Origin: Gyromitra esculenta
Taxonomy: Eukaryota > Ascomycota > Pezizomycetes > Pezizales > Discinaceae
DNA: 64,000 bases
Assembly (NCBI GenBank): GCA_038503075.1
Contig: JBCAML010000007.1
Span: 1,488,001-1,552,000, forward strand
Direction of reading: 5' to 3'
The position numbers and the translations under genes were made by a program. Under the pieces are notes generated by a model, which was given only the letters and a program-made list of their open reading frames with translations, did not search any database and was not told the origin of the DNA. Positions 7,709-64,000 of this stretch are shown here, piece after piece (position 1 is the first letter of the stretch; every line of letters starts with the position of its first letter).

Positions 7709-7791
7709 GATTCAGTGGTGTAGGGGTATCACGGGCGCTTGCCATATCTTATGATTTGCGCCCGACCCGGGTTCGATTCCCGGCTGATTCA
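7709..7791 (+). tRNA. tRNA-Gly (anticodon GCC), intron-containing
   Basis: Cloverleaf read by eye: acceptor 5' strand 7709-7715, 3' strand 7784-7790, discriminator A at 7791. Box A (TGGTGTAGGGG) starts at 7716 and box B carries GTTCGATTC. The anticodon stem GGCGC/GCGCC encloses 19 nt. With the intron in its standard place after position 37, this gives loop TT-GCC-A..T and a 12-nt intron, hence tRNA-Gly(GCC). Acceptor pair 3-70 is a T-T mismatch, present also in the second copy near 63.5 kb. Only five bases separate this gene from the initiator tRNA-Met that follows, and there is no T-run between them, so the two are probably made as one Pol III transcript. Confidence 0.9.
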
Positions 7792-7796
7792 AGCAA

Positions 7797-7868
7797 AGCA
7801 ACATGGCGCAGCGGAAGCGCGCCGGGCTCATAACCCGGAGGTCGCACGATCGAAACGTGCTGTTGCTA
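7797..7868 (+). tRNA. Initiator tRNA-Met (CAT)
   Basis: A 72-nt cloverleaf with a perfect 7-bp acceptor stem (7797-7803 with 7861-7867) and discriminator A at 7868. The body has the eukaryotic initiator marks: A1-T72 pair, a GGG/CCC run flanking the CAT anticodon loop, and GATCGAAA in the T arm in place of TTCG (A54 and A60). It serves translation initiation, not elongation. It lies five bases after tRNA-Gly and is followed by a T8 run. Confidence 0.95.
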
Positions 7869-8871
7869 TATTTTTTTTCACTTTTGTTTCTATGGACGCA
7901 GCAATCCCTTTTTTTTTTTTTTGGCTGTTTGGGAAGGGAAAGTGGAGGCGGAAATACGAAGGACTAATTCAAGAAAATTGTGGAGAAAAAAAAAAAAGAA
8001 AGAAAGAAAGAAAGGGTCTGAAATCAAGCTTTATCAATAGCTTCTTTGCTTTATTGGAGCATTTTACGCTCAATTACTTCTATATCGTACTTGATGCAAC
8101 TGTCGTATTCTTCTTCCCCACAAAGTGGCTCGATTTAAAAGTTGTGCAGAGACCAAGATGGGATCGTGAAATCAATGCCAATGATATCCTTCCTTCCTTC
8201 GCTCCTCGGAGCAAAAACCTCATTCGATGATGTCACTCTCCCAACCACCACCACCCCAGTGAACTTAACTCGTGCAGACGGACCTGGTACCAACTATCTA
8301 ATGCACATCATATGCAGAGAAGAAGAAAAACGCACAGACCATCTTATCAAAGTGGACGTTAAGATCGACTTCAGTACTCAATCTAATTTCCTAAATTAGG
8401 ATTCGACAGGAATGCGGGGATGGCCGGTTCTTTTTTCTTTCTTTTTTTCTTGTGATACGAGGCGTTTTTTTGTATGACTGGGGATTTACTACGCTTGTAG
8501 GGGTATAACCCGCATGGAATTTCTAGGGTGGGTGTAAAGGTTGAAGTGTGTGTGTGGTATGGGTGTAACTGGAGGTCATCTAGCTTGAATATTGAATAGG
8601 TTTGCTCTGGAGGTTAATTAAATAGAGATCAGTACCTTCAGATTCTTAACCAATACTCTTGGAGGGCCTGTTTCGGTATCTGGGACTTTTTATTGGATTT
8701 TGAAATGTCCAATTCTGAGCCGAGTGATATGCTGTGATATCAAATATTTGAGAGAGGCTGTAAAGAGTAGAATTTAGACTTATATAATTTTCTAGAATAC
8801 ATTGTATTTATAACTATATTCATAGACCTGAAAGTCTCGCTTAATACACAAGAGAAATAGACGTATGTATC
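7869..8871. other. Intergenic between the tRNA pair and the ABC transporter 3' end
   Basis: Contains a long T-run near 7910, a GAAA tetranucleotide tandem (about 7997-8016), and two open frames that begin within or just after the tRNAs and match no family. The right half is AT-rich and probably includes the 3' untranslated region of the minus-strand transporter gene. Confidence 0.55.
7871..7878 (+). terminator. RNA polymerase III terminator (T8)
   Basis: Eight T on the coding strand two bases after the end of the initiator tRNA-Met. This is the first T-run of four or more after the tRNA-Gly internal promoter, which supports a shared transcript for both tRNAs. Confidence 0.85.
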
Positions 8872-43687: not shown

Positions 43688-46600
43688 CTAAACGCTCCCT
43701 TGTACAAACTCCATACCAGACACCCGCTCCTGCACCCATTTCCTCACACCTCCTTCCTCTCTCTTCCATGACAGCACAGGCCAAAACCTCTCGTCAACCT
43801 TGACGCTCACCACACTCGTGATGCCCTTGCGGTTGACCTGCTTGATACGGATGTATTCGCCAGTCTTCCATTGCTTGGACCTAACGACATCAACGAGGTC
43901 GTCGATACCGCCGATAGGCACGCCATCAACTTCAAGAATCCAGTGTGTGGGTCTAATGTTATCCAGCGCTGGTGATCCATAGGATACACCACCGACATAG
44001 CAGCCAGGAGTAGTTAGTGGGATTAATGGGGATGGGTTCTTGGAGTCGACTTGTTCCAGCACGGCAGCATGGGTGGAATGAACGATAGCACCGAAGAACT
44101 GAACCACATGTGTCCCTGTGGTGGGGTACGCACGAGTCGTGGGCACAGTCAGGGTAATTTCTGACCTACCACGGAGGACGACCATTTCCACAGAGTCCTT
44201 GTGTTCGAAGTCGAGCTCGGCAAGCTGGGAAACACGGTGGATGGGCTTTCCGTCGATCTCGAGAACAATATCGGCGATCTTGGGTGCTTTCTCTTCATCC
44301 TCAGCCGGGGTCGGCGATGGTCGGAGTCGTGATTCAACGATGAGAGGCCGAGGAACACCGCGGATCTTCTTGGCCTCCTTGACGTAGGCATCGAAGCGCT
44401 TTTGAGACAAGCCCATGGTAGAAACAGTGGCGAGTGGCATATCAGAGAACTCGATTCCCAGATCACGGCGGGGAGGTTCGATCAGACCCTGACCGTTTTC
44501 CGCGTTGATACGGGCAACGACCGGGAGGACATAGCGTCTGATATCAAGACCCTGAGTCCAGTAGGAATCATCACCAGACTTGTTCTGCGAGGAAACGGCC
44601 ATGTAGTAGGCTGCGACCTTCAAGTTCCTCTTCTCCTCGTCCGAAGCAGTCTTGGAAGGCTTGCGAACGATAACACCACCCCAACACCCAGAAGACTCGG
44701 AAACGTTGATGTTTTCGATGTTAATCATCCTGTGACGCGGAGGGTTGCATTGCCAAGTATTGAAGTTGACGCCAATGGAAGCAATCGAGGTCTCTTTTTG
44801 GACTAGAAGTTGGTCGCTACTCAAGCCGACAACCTTCACCTCGTCGCGGACCTTAAGAGGCTTCTCATCCCAATCCGGTACGCTTACGTTTTTGGGGAGA
44901 AGGCTGCTGTCGAAGGTGACAAGTGCAAATTGACCCATGTAGACGACGCGACCAGGAAGGTTCTTGTTGGATACAGTGAGTCGGATATCCAACATCTCCG
45001 TTGGAACCGACGAGCGATCGAAGAGCACAAGCGGGATTGGAGAGAGGGAAACGATCATTCCGACGCCAGAATAATTTGAGGCGGAGGTGTGGCCGTATAT
45101 GGAGTAAGGGAGGCGGCAAACGACGTTGACGAGGGCAGACTTAAGCTTGTCAAGACCGACATCTTCTGGGTCCTCCTCTTCGTCCTCTTCAGTGACTGCC
45201 GTCTCCTCTTCTTCCTTCTTAGCTTCCTCGATCTTTTTCGGTGGTGCTGGTTCGAGTTCACGTCTGATCCAGGTTCCTGCAACATCGTCGCGCTCGAACA
45301 AGGCCCCAAGGAAGAAATGGCGGTCAATGTCAACCATTAACATCTGATCTTCGTTTCTACCCATGGATCTGGTCATGAAAGGAACACGTTCGTAATCAGG
45401 AATACTCTTGAACACTTCGATGAATTGATCAAGGTTCTTTGTTGGCCTTCCGGCAACATGAGTGATAAGGAAATCTCGACTCCATGAAGACCACAGAAGG
45501 AATCCAGAGGCTGTCAAAAGTTAGTTTATACTTCAAATGCAGAAAAAGAGACAAGGTCACAAACCTGCACAAAAGACACCAGTCCCCAATTGCACATTGT
45601 GGCTCCTTCCCACTTGATAGCTCAGGTCGTGAATCACCGCGCCTCCAATTTCCAAAAATCGGTTAGGAGTGATTGAATGTAAATCCTGAACTGTGCAGAC
45701 AACCTGCAATTTACCCCTGGGCCCTGACTTGCCCTCTTTTCCAGACCTAAAAATGTCCAAAATAATATCTTTTCCAACATGGTCATCAATGATACTCCAG
45801 AGACCGATAAAGTTCGTGATGTACTGCCCATTGCATGTGAACAGAATATCACCTGGCTCTAACCCGGGCACCCTAATAACACCAGCTTGAATATCCTCTT
45901 TCGACCTAACAGGCTTCTTGTCCGAACTCGCAGGCCCACCCTTGAGAACACGGACAACACTGAGTAATCCAGTTGCACTGGTATTCCTGACTCTGCATTC
46001 CTCTTCAACCTCTTCCCTCAAACCAAGTCTTCGTAATTCATCGTAGCTGGTGTGAAGGAACTCGGTCTGAAGCGTACCACGACTTACTTTCTCTCCTCTC
46101 TTAATTTTTTCGACCGCGCGAACGACTCGGTCTAGAGGGAGATAAAAGGAGCTTTGCGAGGAATTGCTTCCACCAGCGTTCAAGGCGATAGCTTGACCAT
46201 GAATGTTCAAAACCGGTGAGCCAGATGATCCGCCAGATGTCCCTGAGGCGGCTTGCATGTAAAACGTGTTAAAATCGTTGTACGAGTCAACGCCATAGCT
46301 TGGCGCATGCCTGTCCAACCTGGCAAGGGTGGAACCAAGAATCGATAACTTCTCGCCAGCATCGTTACCAACGACCTTAATATCCTCACCAACTCTAGCA
46401 AGATCCGGTCGGAGTTCGATTTCCTCGACGTTGATGTGCTTAAGCTTCGCCGGATCGTATCGGAACACACCAAAATCGTGGATGGGGTCGCGGTAAACCG
46501 GGTAACAAGGGATTTCCTCGTAGTTAACGAAGACAGCGACAGAAGTGATCGGCGCAGGCGAAACAACGTGCCGATTTGAAAGGATCAATCCGTGTTTTTT

Positions 46601-59000: not shown

Positions 59001-59479
59001 GACTGCTGGACGTTATTGGCAGTTGTGCCGTTTCTAGTAGGATCCCTGGCTGAGTTTGATCTCCCTACTGGTTGGTCTTTACGTGATCTACCGCCATCGT
59101 CTGCCCGTCGGCGATCTCGATCCCTATCTCTCTCTGACTTTTCTCGGTCCCGTCCATCAGTGCTTTGTCCACGAGCACGCCCGTTTGCTGATCTACTCCG
59201 CTCCGTGGATCCTCCAGGTGCTGCTGAAGGTGCAGTGGTTGCTTGACGCTGACTACTAGTTCTTGGGGGGGGTGCAATAGGTGGGCCAGACTGGTTCATA
59301 TTATTGGGATGGTTCTGAGGACTTGGAGGGCTAGGCTGTGCTTCGTTTGATGTCTGGACAGTGGGTGAAAGTCCGGTATAGGTGGTTGGTCGGGGATGTG
59401 AGGGCCTTCCAGCTCTAGGTGGTGATGGGTTTGAAGGTGCAGGAGCAGCGGATGGGGTAGCCGTTGCAACAGATGACAT
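56048..59479 (-). CDS. KIN4: KIN4-like serine/threonine protein kinase
   Basis: Four exons: 59479-58733, 58626-57982, 57927-57636 and 57573-56048 (introns 106, 54 and 62 bp); 1069 aa. In yeast, Kin4 delays mitotic exit when the spindle is misplaced; filamentous homologues are less studied. The first 220 residues are Ser/Pro/Arg-rich and disordered, with a charged RDRDRDRRR tract. The kinase domain has GEGEFGKV (231-238), VAIK (Lys253), HRDLKLEN (Asp348), DFGFAN (366-371) and SCGSPCYAAPE (Glu442). The run YAMLAGYLPFDDDPANPEGDN is diagnostic for the KIN4 branch, as is the PARRVMDFFRRR motif near the C-terminus. Between DFG and SCGSP there are about 40 extra residues compared with the usual loop. 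The long tail of about 500 residues is disordered. The start is set by context AAAAATGTC and the absence of an upstream frame. Confidence 0.92.
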
Positions 59480-61735
59480 TTTTGATGTTTTGTATCAATT
59501 CTATGATAGATGAGCGAGATGTATTTACAGGAGATTGAGCGTTGATTGGTTGACTGACGCCGAGTGGTGGACTCGGCCTTTCCCTTCGACCGGGGGGTTT
59601 GAGAGCCGGTGGAAGAAGAGGGGTGAGAGCGGGAGGAAGGGGGAAGGGGGACAGAGAATACGGGTAGGAGGCCAGGGAGCAACGACGACGGGTAGCTTGG
59701 CAAATTTCCCAAAGAACTCTCGAGGATGGGTTTTGGTGGTCGTCGTGATAATGGATTGTTTACTCACTGAGTAGATGCTGGACAACGGTGCACAGGTCAA
59801 CAGTGGGATGATCGATACGCGACGCTTCCAGCGAGATTAGCCGGATCCTATAGCTGCAAAAGGCAGTGCTCCAGAGCAACGCAGGAAGGCGATGAGGGAA
59901 CTTGAAAAAAAAAATTTAAAAAACGGAGAAGTTTCTCGACGTTGTTGACAATGAACGTCCGTGGGGGTACGGACGGACGTAGGAGAGAGATAGCGGTTGG
60001 TGTGGAGAAGAGTAGTGAGGAGAGCGGATGGGCAGAGAAAAGGGGAAGGGGGTGTGGCTTGCTGCAAAAAACGCGCCCTCCCGTCTCCGTTCGGGTGCTG
60101 GTGATGGTAGTTGATGGAAAACGCGGACCCGAAGATGGAAGAGTCTCTTTCTTGCGATCGCGAACAGCAAAAGGAGTCTTTTCCACTCCTGAAAGCTCTC
60201 TCTCAACGACAACAACAACAATCACGTCCGTACTTGTTGTGGCTACTTACTTTTCAGGAATTTTAGGAACGTTGAATGTGTGACGAGTAAAGGAAGGAAT
60301 AGCCAGCCAGCAGCCCTGTGTCCACCTCGCTTCTCTTTCGCTCGTCCTCTCGCACCCTCGATTCTCACGTCCCACACACACGCGCGCTCCCAAACACTCC
60401 ACCCAACGCAGGAGCTCTGTGATCTTGGTTGCCCTGCTGTTGCGGCTTAAGGGTTGGGGTCGGGTTGCTGCTCGGGGATTGGTGCCGTAGCACGGTCACC
60501 GCGTTTCCGATCTCCCAATCGCCAGCAAACACTTCGTGCTGTCGCACAACGAGGGGGCAGACGGAATCCGCTGTTTCCCACACACTGGATATGTCGCGGA
60601 GTACACAGAACCACAAGTTTAAAACACCGAATGCAATGGATATAACTGAAGAAGGGACGCTGCCACAATGTTGTTCTTCCTCTTCATGTGCTGTCGTCGT
60701 GGGTTGCCTGGCGAAACCTAAAGGCCTGATGCAAAATTAAAGGGACATCACTAGCGTGCCCATTAGTGCAAGCGGAAACGATGAGACAGCCAATACCCCT
60801 TCTGTATTCTGAGACACTGCTGCCCTTTGGCCGATGACGCCGGTCGCCTTCCTTTTGCTTGTGTTCAATTTCCTTCTCCGCAGCCAGCCCGCTTTCGTGA
60901 TCAAAGGAAGCTTCAAGTTTAAAGAAACAAACCGTCGTCAGTAATTGTTTCCTCACCTCTTTTTTCTTACTTCGCCGTCACATGCGGCATAAGGGTCCCA
61001 GCCGTATGCGCATGATGCTGCTGCTGTACATACCCCTATCGGTATCGTCACCGCCAGTGCGGCCAATGAGTAGCCACTAATGTACTTCTCTCCGCGCCCC
61101 ACAATCATGCAATGCAATGCCCGCGTCTCGCTAAACCTGCCAAAGCTCGTCGAGTTCAACCACATCTCATCTCAGTCTCGTAGCAAACAATCTCCCTGCA
61201 ACTTTGAGCACACAAACGAAATAGACCCCAGACAATTCAAACTTTATCCAATCCAAACTGCCATGCCAGAAAATGCCTGTCTATCAGATGTAAGGAGACA
61301 GCTAATCCCCCAATTTTTTAACCCTTAGCATTTAAATTCTAGATCCACGGCTAATGATGGATTTTACAGCACCGTTTAAATGAAACTAATTCTTGGCGTA
61401 ATGCAAAGTTTTTATTCCCGACAACAAAGTGGCTAATGTGCAATCTTCTCTCATGTAATTTTGAAAAGCTGCTTCCGGAACCTCGAATATTTCATCCCAA
61501 CCATTTTTGCTCTCGGTAGACCAGACGATTTCTGTAGGCACATGTGTCGGCTTACGGTGCAACTCTTAATTCGAAACTGGTGTGTGGGGCGGCAAATTTT
61601 ATACGAGGGTCATGAAGAAGTGATATGTATATATAGAACCTTCACTATATGTAGAGTTCGCAAACTAAATATTAAACTTCATCCCGTCATAGCCTGCTAG
61701 CTGTCGAACGCTAAATCCTTGGGCTTCTCATGATG

Positions 61736-62224
61736 ATTACAAACGAGAAAACCTTTCCCATGCCCGCGCTTTTCCTGCAGTACCTTCGGATACCCTCCCC
61801 CCTCTAAGACAACACCCACACCCTTCCACACATGCCCAAGGGAATGCACCTATGAGCATCTCCCAGCAAGCGGTAAATATAGCTTCAAAATATTAACAAG
61901 AAATAAATAAAGTTATAATAAATCTAGTAAAAACCCTTGTTAATTCAGTTTCTTGGAAGTTTCTATATTATCCCTTCATAACTTACCCATGTTTTTTGAT
62001 CTCGGTTTAATTACATGGTAGAGATGTTCTTGGGATAGAGATATTCTTGACATGATTTCTTAGCCAGTATACTTCAACTGTGCCCTAGGACTTAGGGAGG
62101 CGGCTGATTTTTTTATGGTAAGACAATGGTTTTACTTTGGATGGGGGGTGTCTTTGGTGGTCGAGGGTATCCGAAAGTACTGCAGGAAAAGCGCGGGCAT
62201 AGGAAAGGTTTTCTCATTACAAAC
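61736..62224. mobile_element. Mutator-like (MULE) MITE, 471 bp, with 9-bp target duplication
   Basis: Terminal inverted repeats start GAGAAAACCTTTCCCATGCC (61745) and end with the matching complement at 62215. They agree over 53 bases (61745-61797 with 62163-62215) with two mismatches, then continue with weaker matching for about 20 more. The 9-base sequence ATTACAAAC lies directly outside both ends (61736-61744 and 62216-62224). A 9-bp duplication with long terminal inverted repeats is the mark of the Mutator superfamily. The centre is AT-rich without a transposase frame, so the element is non-autonomous. The intact duplication suggests a fairly recent insertion. Confidence 0.85.
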
Positions 62225-62550
62225 ATATGTCTGCCGGGCCGGGGTCCCATGACCAAATCCTACAAGCAGAAAAGTTCCAGAAAATTACCCTATGCGATTC
62301 GTTTCTAACTTCATTCCCAGGTTATCCTTGCGTTGTTTATTTAGCCGATTTTAGCGCCTTTTTGATTCCTTTCTACTTGTGCGCGGTTCGTTGGTCCAAC
62401 GATAGTTCACTCCCCGGCCCGTTAACGGATCGTGTTAAACGATTTTTCGAAAAAAATACCCCCCTTCTCGGATCCATCGACTCCTTACTTTCGGTAAACG
62501 CTGTAGCGAATTTAGCGACGGCAGCTTCTTAGCATCGGCGTAGTCTTTTA

Positions 62551-62592
62551 CTACTAAGCTTCCGTCAAGACTAAATGTATTTAGCTTAGTAG
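62551..62592. repeat. Short perfect inverted repeat
   Basis: CTACTAAGCT (62551-62560) and AGCTTAGTAG (62583-62592) are perfect complements with a 22-base loop. It could be a hairpin in RNA or the end of a decayed element. No gene is near enough to suggest a terminator role. Confidence 0.5.
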
Positions 62593-63381
62593 TTAGGCGC
62601 TTGAGGCACACCAAGGTTTGAATTTATCTAGCACTAACTGGTTACATGTTTTAGCCCATGAACCATCAAGTATCACCAATTTTCGTTTCTTTTATCTCCA
62701 TTTTCATTTATTTTTCTCTACTGGGGAACGAGGAATCCCATTAAATAAAATTATACACGTTTTTGTCCCCTTACATTGACGTTGGGTACCGCCGCATTCT
62801 CCGCAAGAGGTGACACAACGTTGTTCGCGCGTAGGTACCGGTCACAATGATACCTGTACCACTTTTCGCGCGATTATTTACTTTTCATTACCAGGGCCCA
62901 CTCCCTGCGATTCCGTCGCACCAGAAGACACATTCCTCAAGTCTTGCCCCTCACAGTTTAAAACGCGCGAGATAGCTATCGTGTCGCGTTTATTACTATC
63001 TGTTTCGTATCCCAAGACCAGTGGACAACTCCTTCAACAAGGAAATAAATAGTACTATTGTATTTCGACCCCACCAATGGCACCGTTATTATGGGGAATG
63101 GGGGAGATTTAACCTTCTGTGAGGACTTGTGGAGATCGTTCTTGACGAAAAATATGCCATGGCACACTGTTCCCAGGTACGGTAGGCGATTGATATAACC
63201 ATCCTGCACCAGGCACCAGGCCAGCCTCAACCTAACCCAAGCCAGCTCCTGGTACGAACCGTCTAAGGCAGATGTTAGGCGGAGCGATAGAGAAATATGG
63301 TTTGGGCGCGTTTTCTGGGCGGTTGTATTGACATAAAAAACTTAATCACCAGAACATATACAGTGAGTTTAGGGAGAAGGG

Positions 63382-63388
63382 AAAAAAA
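63382..63388 (-). terminator. RNA polymerase III terminator (T7)
   Basis: Seven T on the coding (minus) strand three bases after the end of the initiator tRNA-Met. No T-run of four or more lies between the two tRNAs. Confidence 0.8.
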
Positions 63389-63391
63389 TAT

Positions 63392-63463
63392 TAGCAACAG
63401 CACGTTTCGATCGTGCGACCTCCGGGTTATGAGCCCGGCGCGCTTCCGCTGCGCCATGTTGCT
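63392..63463 (-). tRNA. Initiator tRNA-Met (CAT), second copy
   Basis: Identical over all 72 bases to the copy at 7797-7868, with the same A1-T72 pair and GATCGAAA T-loop that mark an initiator. It lies six bases after the end of a tRNA-Gly(GCC), the same order and orientation as in the first unit, but on the opposite strand of the window. Confidence 0.95.
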
Positions 63464-63469
63464 TAAGCG

Positions 63470-63551
63470 TGAATCAGCCGGGAATCGAACCCGGGTCGGG
63501 CGCAAATCATAAGAATGGCAAGCGCCCGTGATACCCCTACACCACTGAATC
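63470..63551 (-). tRNA. tRNA-Gly (GCC), intron-containing, second copy
   Basis: Same mature sequence as the copy at 7709-7791, including the T-T mismatch at acceptor pair 3-70. The intron is 11 nt here against 12 nt in the first copy. Box A and box B are intact. The six-base spacer to tRNA-iMet differs from the five-base spacer of the first unit, and the flanks outside the units are unrelated. Confidence 0.9.
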
Positions 63552-64000
63552 GGATGTTTACATTGGTCAAAGGTGCTCCATAAAATTATCACCCGTGATT
63601 GCTACTTGTTTAATTACCATCATATAATATCACTCAACAGCATCACAAAACTTTTTTGCACAATAGTCCTCGTACCCTTCCCAAACGCAATTCGGATAGA
63701 TATCAGGCTTGAATGAAACTACCTCCCGCTTTTCGTAAAATTAGTTCTCTGTCTAAACCGCATATGTTTCGTAGCCTCACGCTCTTACTCGGGCCTTGTT
63801 ACCTGTAATAGTGCACAGCGATCCCTTCCATTACGTGATTCTTGATATAAATGTGCTCTATGGATTTCTCATTGAATTAGATTGAGCTTATAATTTCGAC
63901 GTTCCTTAGACTGAACCGTCGTGGAGAGTCCCCACCATCCTGAGGAGATTATCCCTTGGTACAGGAAATAAAGTATGCATTGCTTACCACTCGGGTATTT
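63552..64000. other. Window end, no feature seen
   Basis: Upstream flank of the second tRNA unit. No open frame or repeat of note in the final 450 bases. Confidence 0.6.

What the first reader, a model, noticed from the sequence alone, without database searches (positions are those of the whole stretch)
7709..7878. Probable dicistronic tRNA-Gly(GCC)/initiator tRNA-Met gene, present twice in the window
An intron-containing tRNA-Gly and an initiator tRNA-Met are separated by only 5 bases here and by 6 bases in a second unit at 63392-63551 on the other strand. In both units there is no Pol III stop signal between the genes and a T-run just after tRNA-iMet. The mature tRNAs are identical between units while spacer, intron and flanks differ, so the pairing is maintained, not a fresh copy of a larger segment. 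Fission yeast has dimeric tRNA-Ser/tRNA-iMet genes, also with an intron-bearing first tRNA whose promoter drives both. A Gly/iMet pair would be the same design with another partner, and would tie initiator supply to a glycine tRNA promoter.
Basis: partly seen in the sequence, partly recalled or inferred. Interest (0 to 1): 0.75.

Follow-up and report, generated by a model that had tools for sequence, protein, structure and literature searches.

The report
Paired glycine and initiator tRNA genes
In a morel-like fungus two of the nine genes found for the tRNA that starts every protein sit directly behind a glycine tRNA gene, apparently to borrow its promoter, and most of the other copies carry what looks like a spare promoter element just after the gene instead.

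Summary
Two units (7709-7878 +; 63551-63382 -) hold an intron-bearing tRNA-Gly(GCC), a 5- or 6-nt spacer, tRNA-iMet and a T-run, with no terminator between the genes. In this morel-like genome I found 9 iMet genes, 2 paired and 7 solo, so pairing is not the only source of initiator tRNA. The two units probably share one origin.

The wider pattern is new to the finding. All 9 iMet genes have a poor internal box B (4-5 mismatches; the 75 other tRNA genes examined have 0-3). Paired copies sit behind a perfect tRNA-Gly box B. Six of 7 solo copies have TTCAAWT 3-6 nt after the gene, against 1 of 75 others; in four it is a recognisable box B, the top four downstream scores of 84 genes. The solo copy without it (L015) has changes at G26 and C61.

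Best reading: initiator genes use an outside box B, from an upstream tRNA-Gly or a 3' site. Co-transcription and TFIIIC binding are inferred. S. pombe tRNASer-iMet dimers are the precedent.

The parts
7709..7791 (+). tRNA-Gly(GCC), unit 1: exon 1 7709-7744, intron 7745-7756 (12 nt), exon 2 7757-7791
7770..7780 (+). box B of tRNA-Gly, GGTTCGATTCC, 0 mismatches
   Evidence: consensus recalled
7792..7796 (+). 5-nt spacer, no terminator
7797..7868 (+). tRNA-iMet(CAU), unit 1
7847..7857 (+). weak internal box B of iMet, CGATCGAAACG, 4 mismatches
7871..7878 (+). run of 8 T, likely Pol III terminator
63470..63551 (-). tRNA-Gly(GCC), unit 2: exon 1 63551-63516, intron 63515-63505 (11 nt), exon 2 63504-63470
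63481..63491 (-). box B of tRNA-Gly in unit 2, 0 mismatches
63464..63469 (-). 6-nt spacer, no terminator
63392..63463 (-). tRNA-iMet(CAU), unit 2
63403..63413 (-). weak internal box B of iMet, 4 mismatches
63382..63388 (-). run of 7 T, likely Pol III terminator

Best explanation
Each unit is a dicistronic Pol III gene. TFIIIC binds box A and the perfect box B of tRNA-Gly. Pol III starts upstream of tRNA-Gly, reads through the 5-6 nt spacer, which lacks a terminator, copies iMet and stops at the T-run behind it. RNase P, 3' trimming and splicing then release both tRNAs. The arrangement is useful because the iMet gene's own box B is poor: A54 and A60, marks of an initiator, and the T-stem bases 52 and 62 spoil it. 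Most other iMet genes meet the same problem with an extragenic box-B-like element a few bases after the gene, at a box A to box B distance that other long tRNA genes here also use. Shown: gene layout, missing terminator, poor box B in all nine copies found, 3' motif in 6 of 7 solo copies (box-B-like in 4). Likely from sequence: single origin of the pair. Inferred: co-transcription, TFIIIC binding at the 3' motif, dependence of iMet expression on either.
For: Layout and terminators. 9 of 9 solo Gly genes have a T4+ run starting 4-48 nt downstream, while the 2 paired Gly genes have none until after iMet. Internal box B: 9 of 9 iMet genes have 4-5 mismatches to GGTTCRANTCC, 75 of 75 others 0-3. 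With a box-B matrix built from those 75, the four best scores in the first 30 nt downstream, of 84 genes, belong to solo iMet genes (14.6, 13.8, 8.5, 8.5; next 3.8); the chance that four random genes of 84 all fall among the seven solo iMet genes is 1.8e-5, and a first-order model flank reaches 8.4 with probability 0.0024. TTCAAWT within 30 nt downstream: 6 of 7 solo iMet, 1 of 75 others, Fisher p 1.4e-7. Its distance from box A is 66-69 nt in all six; 13 of 75 other genes have 66-79. Blast of the iMet flanks (1.5 kb each side) at E 0.1 found no similarity among the solo copies except one 24-nt match in T-rich sequence behind the genes. L015, with neither motif nor partner, has changes at G26 and C61.
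Against: No RNA or binding data. In L011 and L013 the 3' motif is degenerate as box B (scores -5.7 and -6.4, 4 mismatches each), and it runs into T-runs (TTTT in L011, TTTTT in L013); so only 4 of 7 solo copies pass as box B, and two of these (8.5) lie just under the weakest internal box B of the other genes (9.5). The motif and the 30-nt window were chosen after looking. L014 and L016 share an extended motif and may not be independent. Six intact copies share nearly the same gene body, so recent gene conversion or copying cannot be excluded. In S. pombe the stand-alone iMet gene, when overexpressed, gave more tRNA than the tandem gene (PMC9362929, passages), so a tandem need not be the stronger arrangement. 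No comparison with other fungal genomes was possible.
Confidence: 0.58

Rival explanations
1. The pair is a plain dicistronic gene with no compensation logic: an iMet copy landed behind a tRNA-Gly by chance and the unit was later copied. iMet genes transcribe well enough from their own boxes.
For: Likely one origin of the pair; only 2 of 9 iMet genes found are paired; all nine keep the same box A region, and one identical solo sequence occurs in four copies (L011-L014) with unrelated flanks. L011, L013 and L015 lack a good outside box B.
Against: Does not explain why, of 84 genes, only iMet genes have so poor a box B and why the four best downstream box-B-like sites all follow solo iMet genes.
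Confidence: 0.25
2. The 3' motif of solo iMet genes acts in RNA: it is a trailer signal for 3' processing or for La or exonuclease handling of pre-iMet, not a promoter element. The pair lacks it because its short trailer is handled differently.
For: The motif lies before the main T-run in five of six copies, so it would be transcribed; the distance from the gene to the first T5+ run is 23-26 nt in five of six (10 in L013). A link between Rex1 and precursor iMet in yeast appears as a cited title in PMC12129344.
Against: No T-stem forms around it: at most 3 of 5 pairs in any copy, G-U counted. Matches extend to box-B flank bases (G53, C61) in four copies.
Confidence: 0.15
3. The genes in a unit are transcribed separately; iMet starts from its own promoter inside or near tRNA-Gly.
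For: iMet keeps box A and part of box B.
Against: A 5-6 nt spacer leaves no room for an upstream TFIIIB site outside tRNA-Gly (inference); no terminator follows the paired tRNA-Gly, unlike the 9 solo Gly genes.
Confidence: 0.1

Closest known systems
Dimeric tRNASer-tRNAiMet genes of Schizosaccharomyces pombe
   Same: Two tRNA genes in tandem, initiator second, expressed as one transcript. PMC9362929 (passages) says 3 of 4 S. pombe iMet genes are expressed as tRNASer-iMet dimeric transcripts (sup9+ with imt07+ is one) and cites Mao 1980.
   Different: Partner is tRNA-Gly(GCC); 2 of 9 iMet genes are paired instead of 3 of 4; six of seven solo iMet genes here have a 3' motif, box-B-like in four. 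Whether S. pombe's solo gene has one was not tested.
tRNAArg-tRNAAsp tandem genes of Saccharomyces cerevisiae
   Same: Two tRNAs from one precursor, split first by RNase P at the second tRNA (PMC12129344, passages).
   Different: No initiator tRNA involved.
Extragenic box B of S. cerevisiae SNR6 (U6)
   Same: A box B outside the RNA-coding part completes a Pol III promoter. PMC9136082 (start of abstract) speaks of widely separated TFIIIC sites on SNR6; the rest is recalled.
   Different: Here the box lies a few bases after a tRNA gene and before the main T-run, and an internal, poor box B exists too.

Membership tests
Dimeric (dicistronic) tRNA genes | Two tRNA genes on one strand, a few nt apart | tested here: met
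   5 and 6 nt; closest other neighbours seen among 84 genes 225 nt
Dimeric (dicistronic) tRNA genes | No Pol III terminator between, one after the second gene | tested here: met
Dimeric (dicistronic) tRNA genes | A dimeric precursor RNA | not testable with these tools
   no RNA data
S. pombe tRNASer-tRNAiMet dimers | Initiator tRNA is the second gene | tested here: met
S. pombe tRNASer-tRNAiMet dimers | First gene is tRNASer | tested here: not met
   it is tRNA-Gly(GCC); so similar design, not a member of that gene family
S. pombe tRNASer-tRNAiMet dimers | Most iMet genes are in dimers (3 of 4) | tested here: not met
   2 of 9 found here
SNR6-like extragenic box B | Box B downstream of the terminator (recalled) | tested here: not met
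   the 3' motif of solo iMet genes starts before the main T5+ run in all six; in L013 it runs into it
SNR6-like extragenic box B | TFIIIC binds it and transcription needs it | not testable with these tools
   no binding data

The most novel reading that the evidence does not exclude
Initiator tRNA genes of this fungal lineage as a class cannot rely on their internal box B, because the bases that define an initiator (A54, A60) damage it, and each working copy borrows an outside box B: either a TFIIIC site a few bases behind the gene, at the box A to box B distance of an intron-bearing tRNA gene, or the promoter of a tRNA-Gly in front. Copies that lose both decay, as L015 suggests.
Probability: 0.42. 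Interest if true: 0.75.

Novelty: new variant of a known kind. Interest (0 to 1): 0.6.

Why it matters
The initiator tRNA must differ from elongators in its T-loop, which is also its promoter. The data suggest that a cell pays for this double use and makes up for it in two different ways, one of which, dicistronic pairing, is also found in S. pombe with another partner. That would offer a reason why initiator tRNA turns up in fungal dimers, and a simple test: count outside box B elements at initiator genes across fungi.

Tried and rejected
Independent maintenance of two pairs: not favoured, since both units share an iMet T-stem variant absent from six of the seven solo copies and introns one edit apart. 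The margin on introns is small: the nearest solo Gly introns (two copies in L020) are two edits from either. A segmental inverted duplication: not supported, since similarity stops at the Gly start and at the T-run. Gapped tRNA-iMet patterns in viral and prokaryote collections: 4 and 2 stretches, all with arrays of 6 to 35 tRNA genes and none an eukaryotic iMet. An initiator-specific pattern in viral contigs: 0 matches. Two further matches of the iMet core pattern, each with 2 mismatches (L038, L039): ARAGORN finds no tRNA there. A T-arm around the 3' motif: not supported. Upstream base preferences at -1 to -4: C at -1 in 5 of 7 solo iMet genes, nothing I could interpret. Folding the three tRNA sequences gave no added insight; minimum-energy folds are not full cloverleafs. 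An S. pombe paper sought by a recalled DOI is not held.

Literature: searches (one search returned nothing) listed, among the rows shown, no paper whose title or shown abstract start describes a tRNA-Gly/iMet dicistron or a 3' box B of iMet genes. I read passages only of three papers. This is no proof that neither is in print.

The control set has limits: the 84 distinct genes are the 62 best Rfam matches (63 of 2006 candidates were scored) plus iMet, Gly and their neighbours; the genome surely has more tRNA genes. Identities are ARAGORN's and some labels of intron-bearing genes may be wrong.

Full report
Observation. The window holds two units, each an intron-bearing tRNA-Gly(GCC) followed by tRNA-iMet on the same strand: 7709-7791 and 7797-7868 on +, 63551-63470 and 63463-63392 on -. 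ARAGORN without its intron option miscalls the first gene as Ala. Spacers are 5 and 6 nt. There is no T-run of four or more from the Gly start to the iMet end, and runs of 8 and 7 T start at +3 and +4 after iMet. The nine solo Gly genes all have a T4+ run starting 4-48 nt downstream. In the stretches fetched around 84 distinct tRNA genes (at least 300 nt on each side of each match) no other two lie closer than 225 nt. For a guessed 200 tRNA genes in 47 Mb, my own arithmetic expects far less than 0.1 same-strand neighbours within 10 nt.

Source. The protein at 43691-45517 - (PDZ domains, NMA111-like) is 90% identical to a Morchella snyderi protein and 80% to Tuber borchii, so the genome (47.1 Mb, 23 contigs) is probably from a morel or a near relative; the species is not known to me. 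Of ten ORFs of the window scanned, seven match ordinary Pfam families (Dus, PDZ/trypsin, ABC transporter, Psg1, aminotransferase) and three match none.

Copy number. Nine iMet genes were found: the two of the window and seven others, none of the seven with another tRNA gene detected within 1.5 kb. Eleven Gly-GCC genes of this type were found, nine of them solo.

Origin. The two units align over 171 nt at 97%, from the first base of Gly to the T-run, and not beyond (4 kb on each side of unit 1 against 59392-64000). All mature bases are identical; spacer, intron and tail differ. Their introns are one edit apart, the nearest solo Gly introns two edits, the rest four or more. Both iMet genes carry a T-stem with G49:C65, shared only with solo copy L015. 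So the pair probably arose once and was copied; both tRNAs stayed unchanged while bases between and around them drifted, by selection or by gene conversion.

Poor box B. Box B spans tRNA positions 52-62 (PMC3978253, passages); the consensus GGTTCGANTCC is recalled. All nine iMet genes differ from it at 4 or 5 places; the other 75 genes differ at 0 to 3. The same paper's passages list A54 as an initiator feature, so part of this weakness is the price of initiator identity; A60 is recalled.

Outside box B. I built a box-B matrix from the 75 other genes and scored the 30 nt behind each of 84 genes. The four best are solo iMet genes L012 (14.6), L017 (13.8), L014 and L016 (8.5 each); the next gene scores 3.8. 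Model flanks reach 8.4 with probability 0.0024; 0 of 84 genes reach it 41-100 nt downstream. In the 60 nt upstream only the two paired iMet genes reach it, through the box B of tRNA-Gly. The T-loop word TTCAAWT occurs within 30 nt downstream of 6 of 7 solo iMet genes and 1 of 75 others (Fisher p 1.4e-7), with 3 to 6 bases between gene and word. It puts the box 66-69 nt from box A; 13 of the 75 other genes, 95-108 nt long through introns or long arms, have 66-79. No T-stem surrounds it (at most 3 of 5 pairs), which favours a DNA site over an RNA arm. Flanks of the solo iMet genes show no similarity to each other in Blast apart from one 24-nt match in T-rich sequence.

Results against. In L011 and L013 the word is there but the flanking box-B bases are lost (scores -5.7 and -6.4), and T-runs of 4 and 5 overlap it. 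L015 has no motif. Word and window were chosen after seeing the data, and L014 and L016 share an extended motif. Two of the four good boxes score just below the weakest internal box B of the other genes (8.5 against 9.5). The control set is the best-scoring part of the tRNA set, not all of it.

L015. It lacks both a partner and the motif, shares the T-stem of the paired type and an early T-run (start at +5, against +3 and +4 in the pairs), and has changes at G26 and C61. That is what a copy that lost its promoter would look like, but it is one case.

Mechanism. Most likely, Pol III starts at tRNA-Gly, reads through iMet and stops at the T-run, and RNase P and splicing release the parts, as RNase P does for the tRNAArg-tRNAAsp precursor of yeast (PMC12129344, passages). 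The 3' motif of solo genes would serve TFIIIC as a better box B. Both are inferences from sequence.

Known relatives. PMC9362929 (passages) reports that three of four S. pombe iMet genes are expressed as tRNASer-iMet dimers. It also reports that the stand-alone gene, overexpressed, gives more initiator tRNA than the tandem, a point against a simple 'pair for more output' view. The present pair has the same design with another partner, so it is a new variant of a known kind. The 3' box at solo initiator genes is the less expected part; my paper searches listed nothing on it, but they see only open-licence papers.

Noticed in passing
7709-7791, 63470-63551 and nine solo genes (L020-L028): 10 of 11 tRNA-Gly(GCC) genes have a U3.U70 mismatch in the acceptor stem; only L028 has a U3:A70 pair (read). 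Seems unusual for a main glycine tRNA.
   Followed up: no
61742-61818 and 62142-62218: 77-bp inverted repeat, 87% identical, arms about 320 bp apart, 1.2 kb from unit 2; could be a small MITE-type element.
   Followed up: no
L095, downstream of tRNA-Asn(GTT): The only non-initiator gene of 75 with TTCAAWT within 30 nt downstream (at +4).
   Followed up: no
L024 (C7:1310867-1310950): A solo tRNA-Gly copy with changes at bases 26 and 29 of exon 1; my notebook called the stem broken, but base 29 would still form a G-U pair.
   Followed up: no
L012, 34 nt upstream of iMet: A second box-B-like site GGTTCGAATTG (score 6.0), the best upstream site apart from those of the paired genes.
   Followed up: no
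contigs C7, C4, C2 and C9 of G000: Of the 11 tRNA-Gly(GCC) genes 8 lie on C7 (1.195-1.552 Mb), 2 on C4, 1 on C2; 4 of 9 iMet genes lie on C9 (1.45-1.66 Mb), suggesting local spread of tRNA genes.
   Followed up: no
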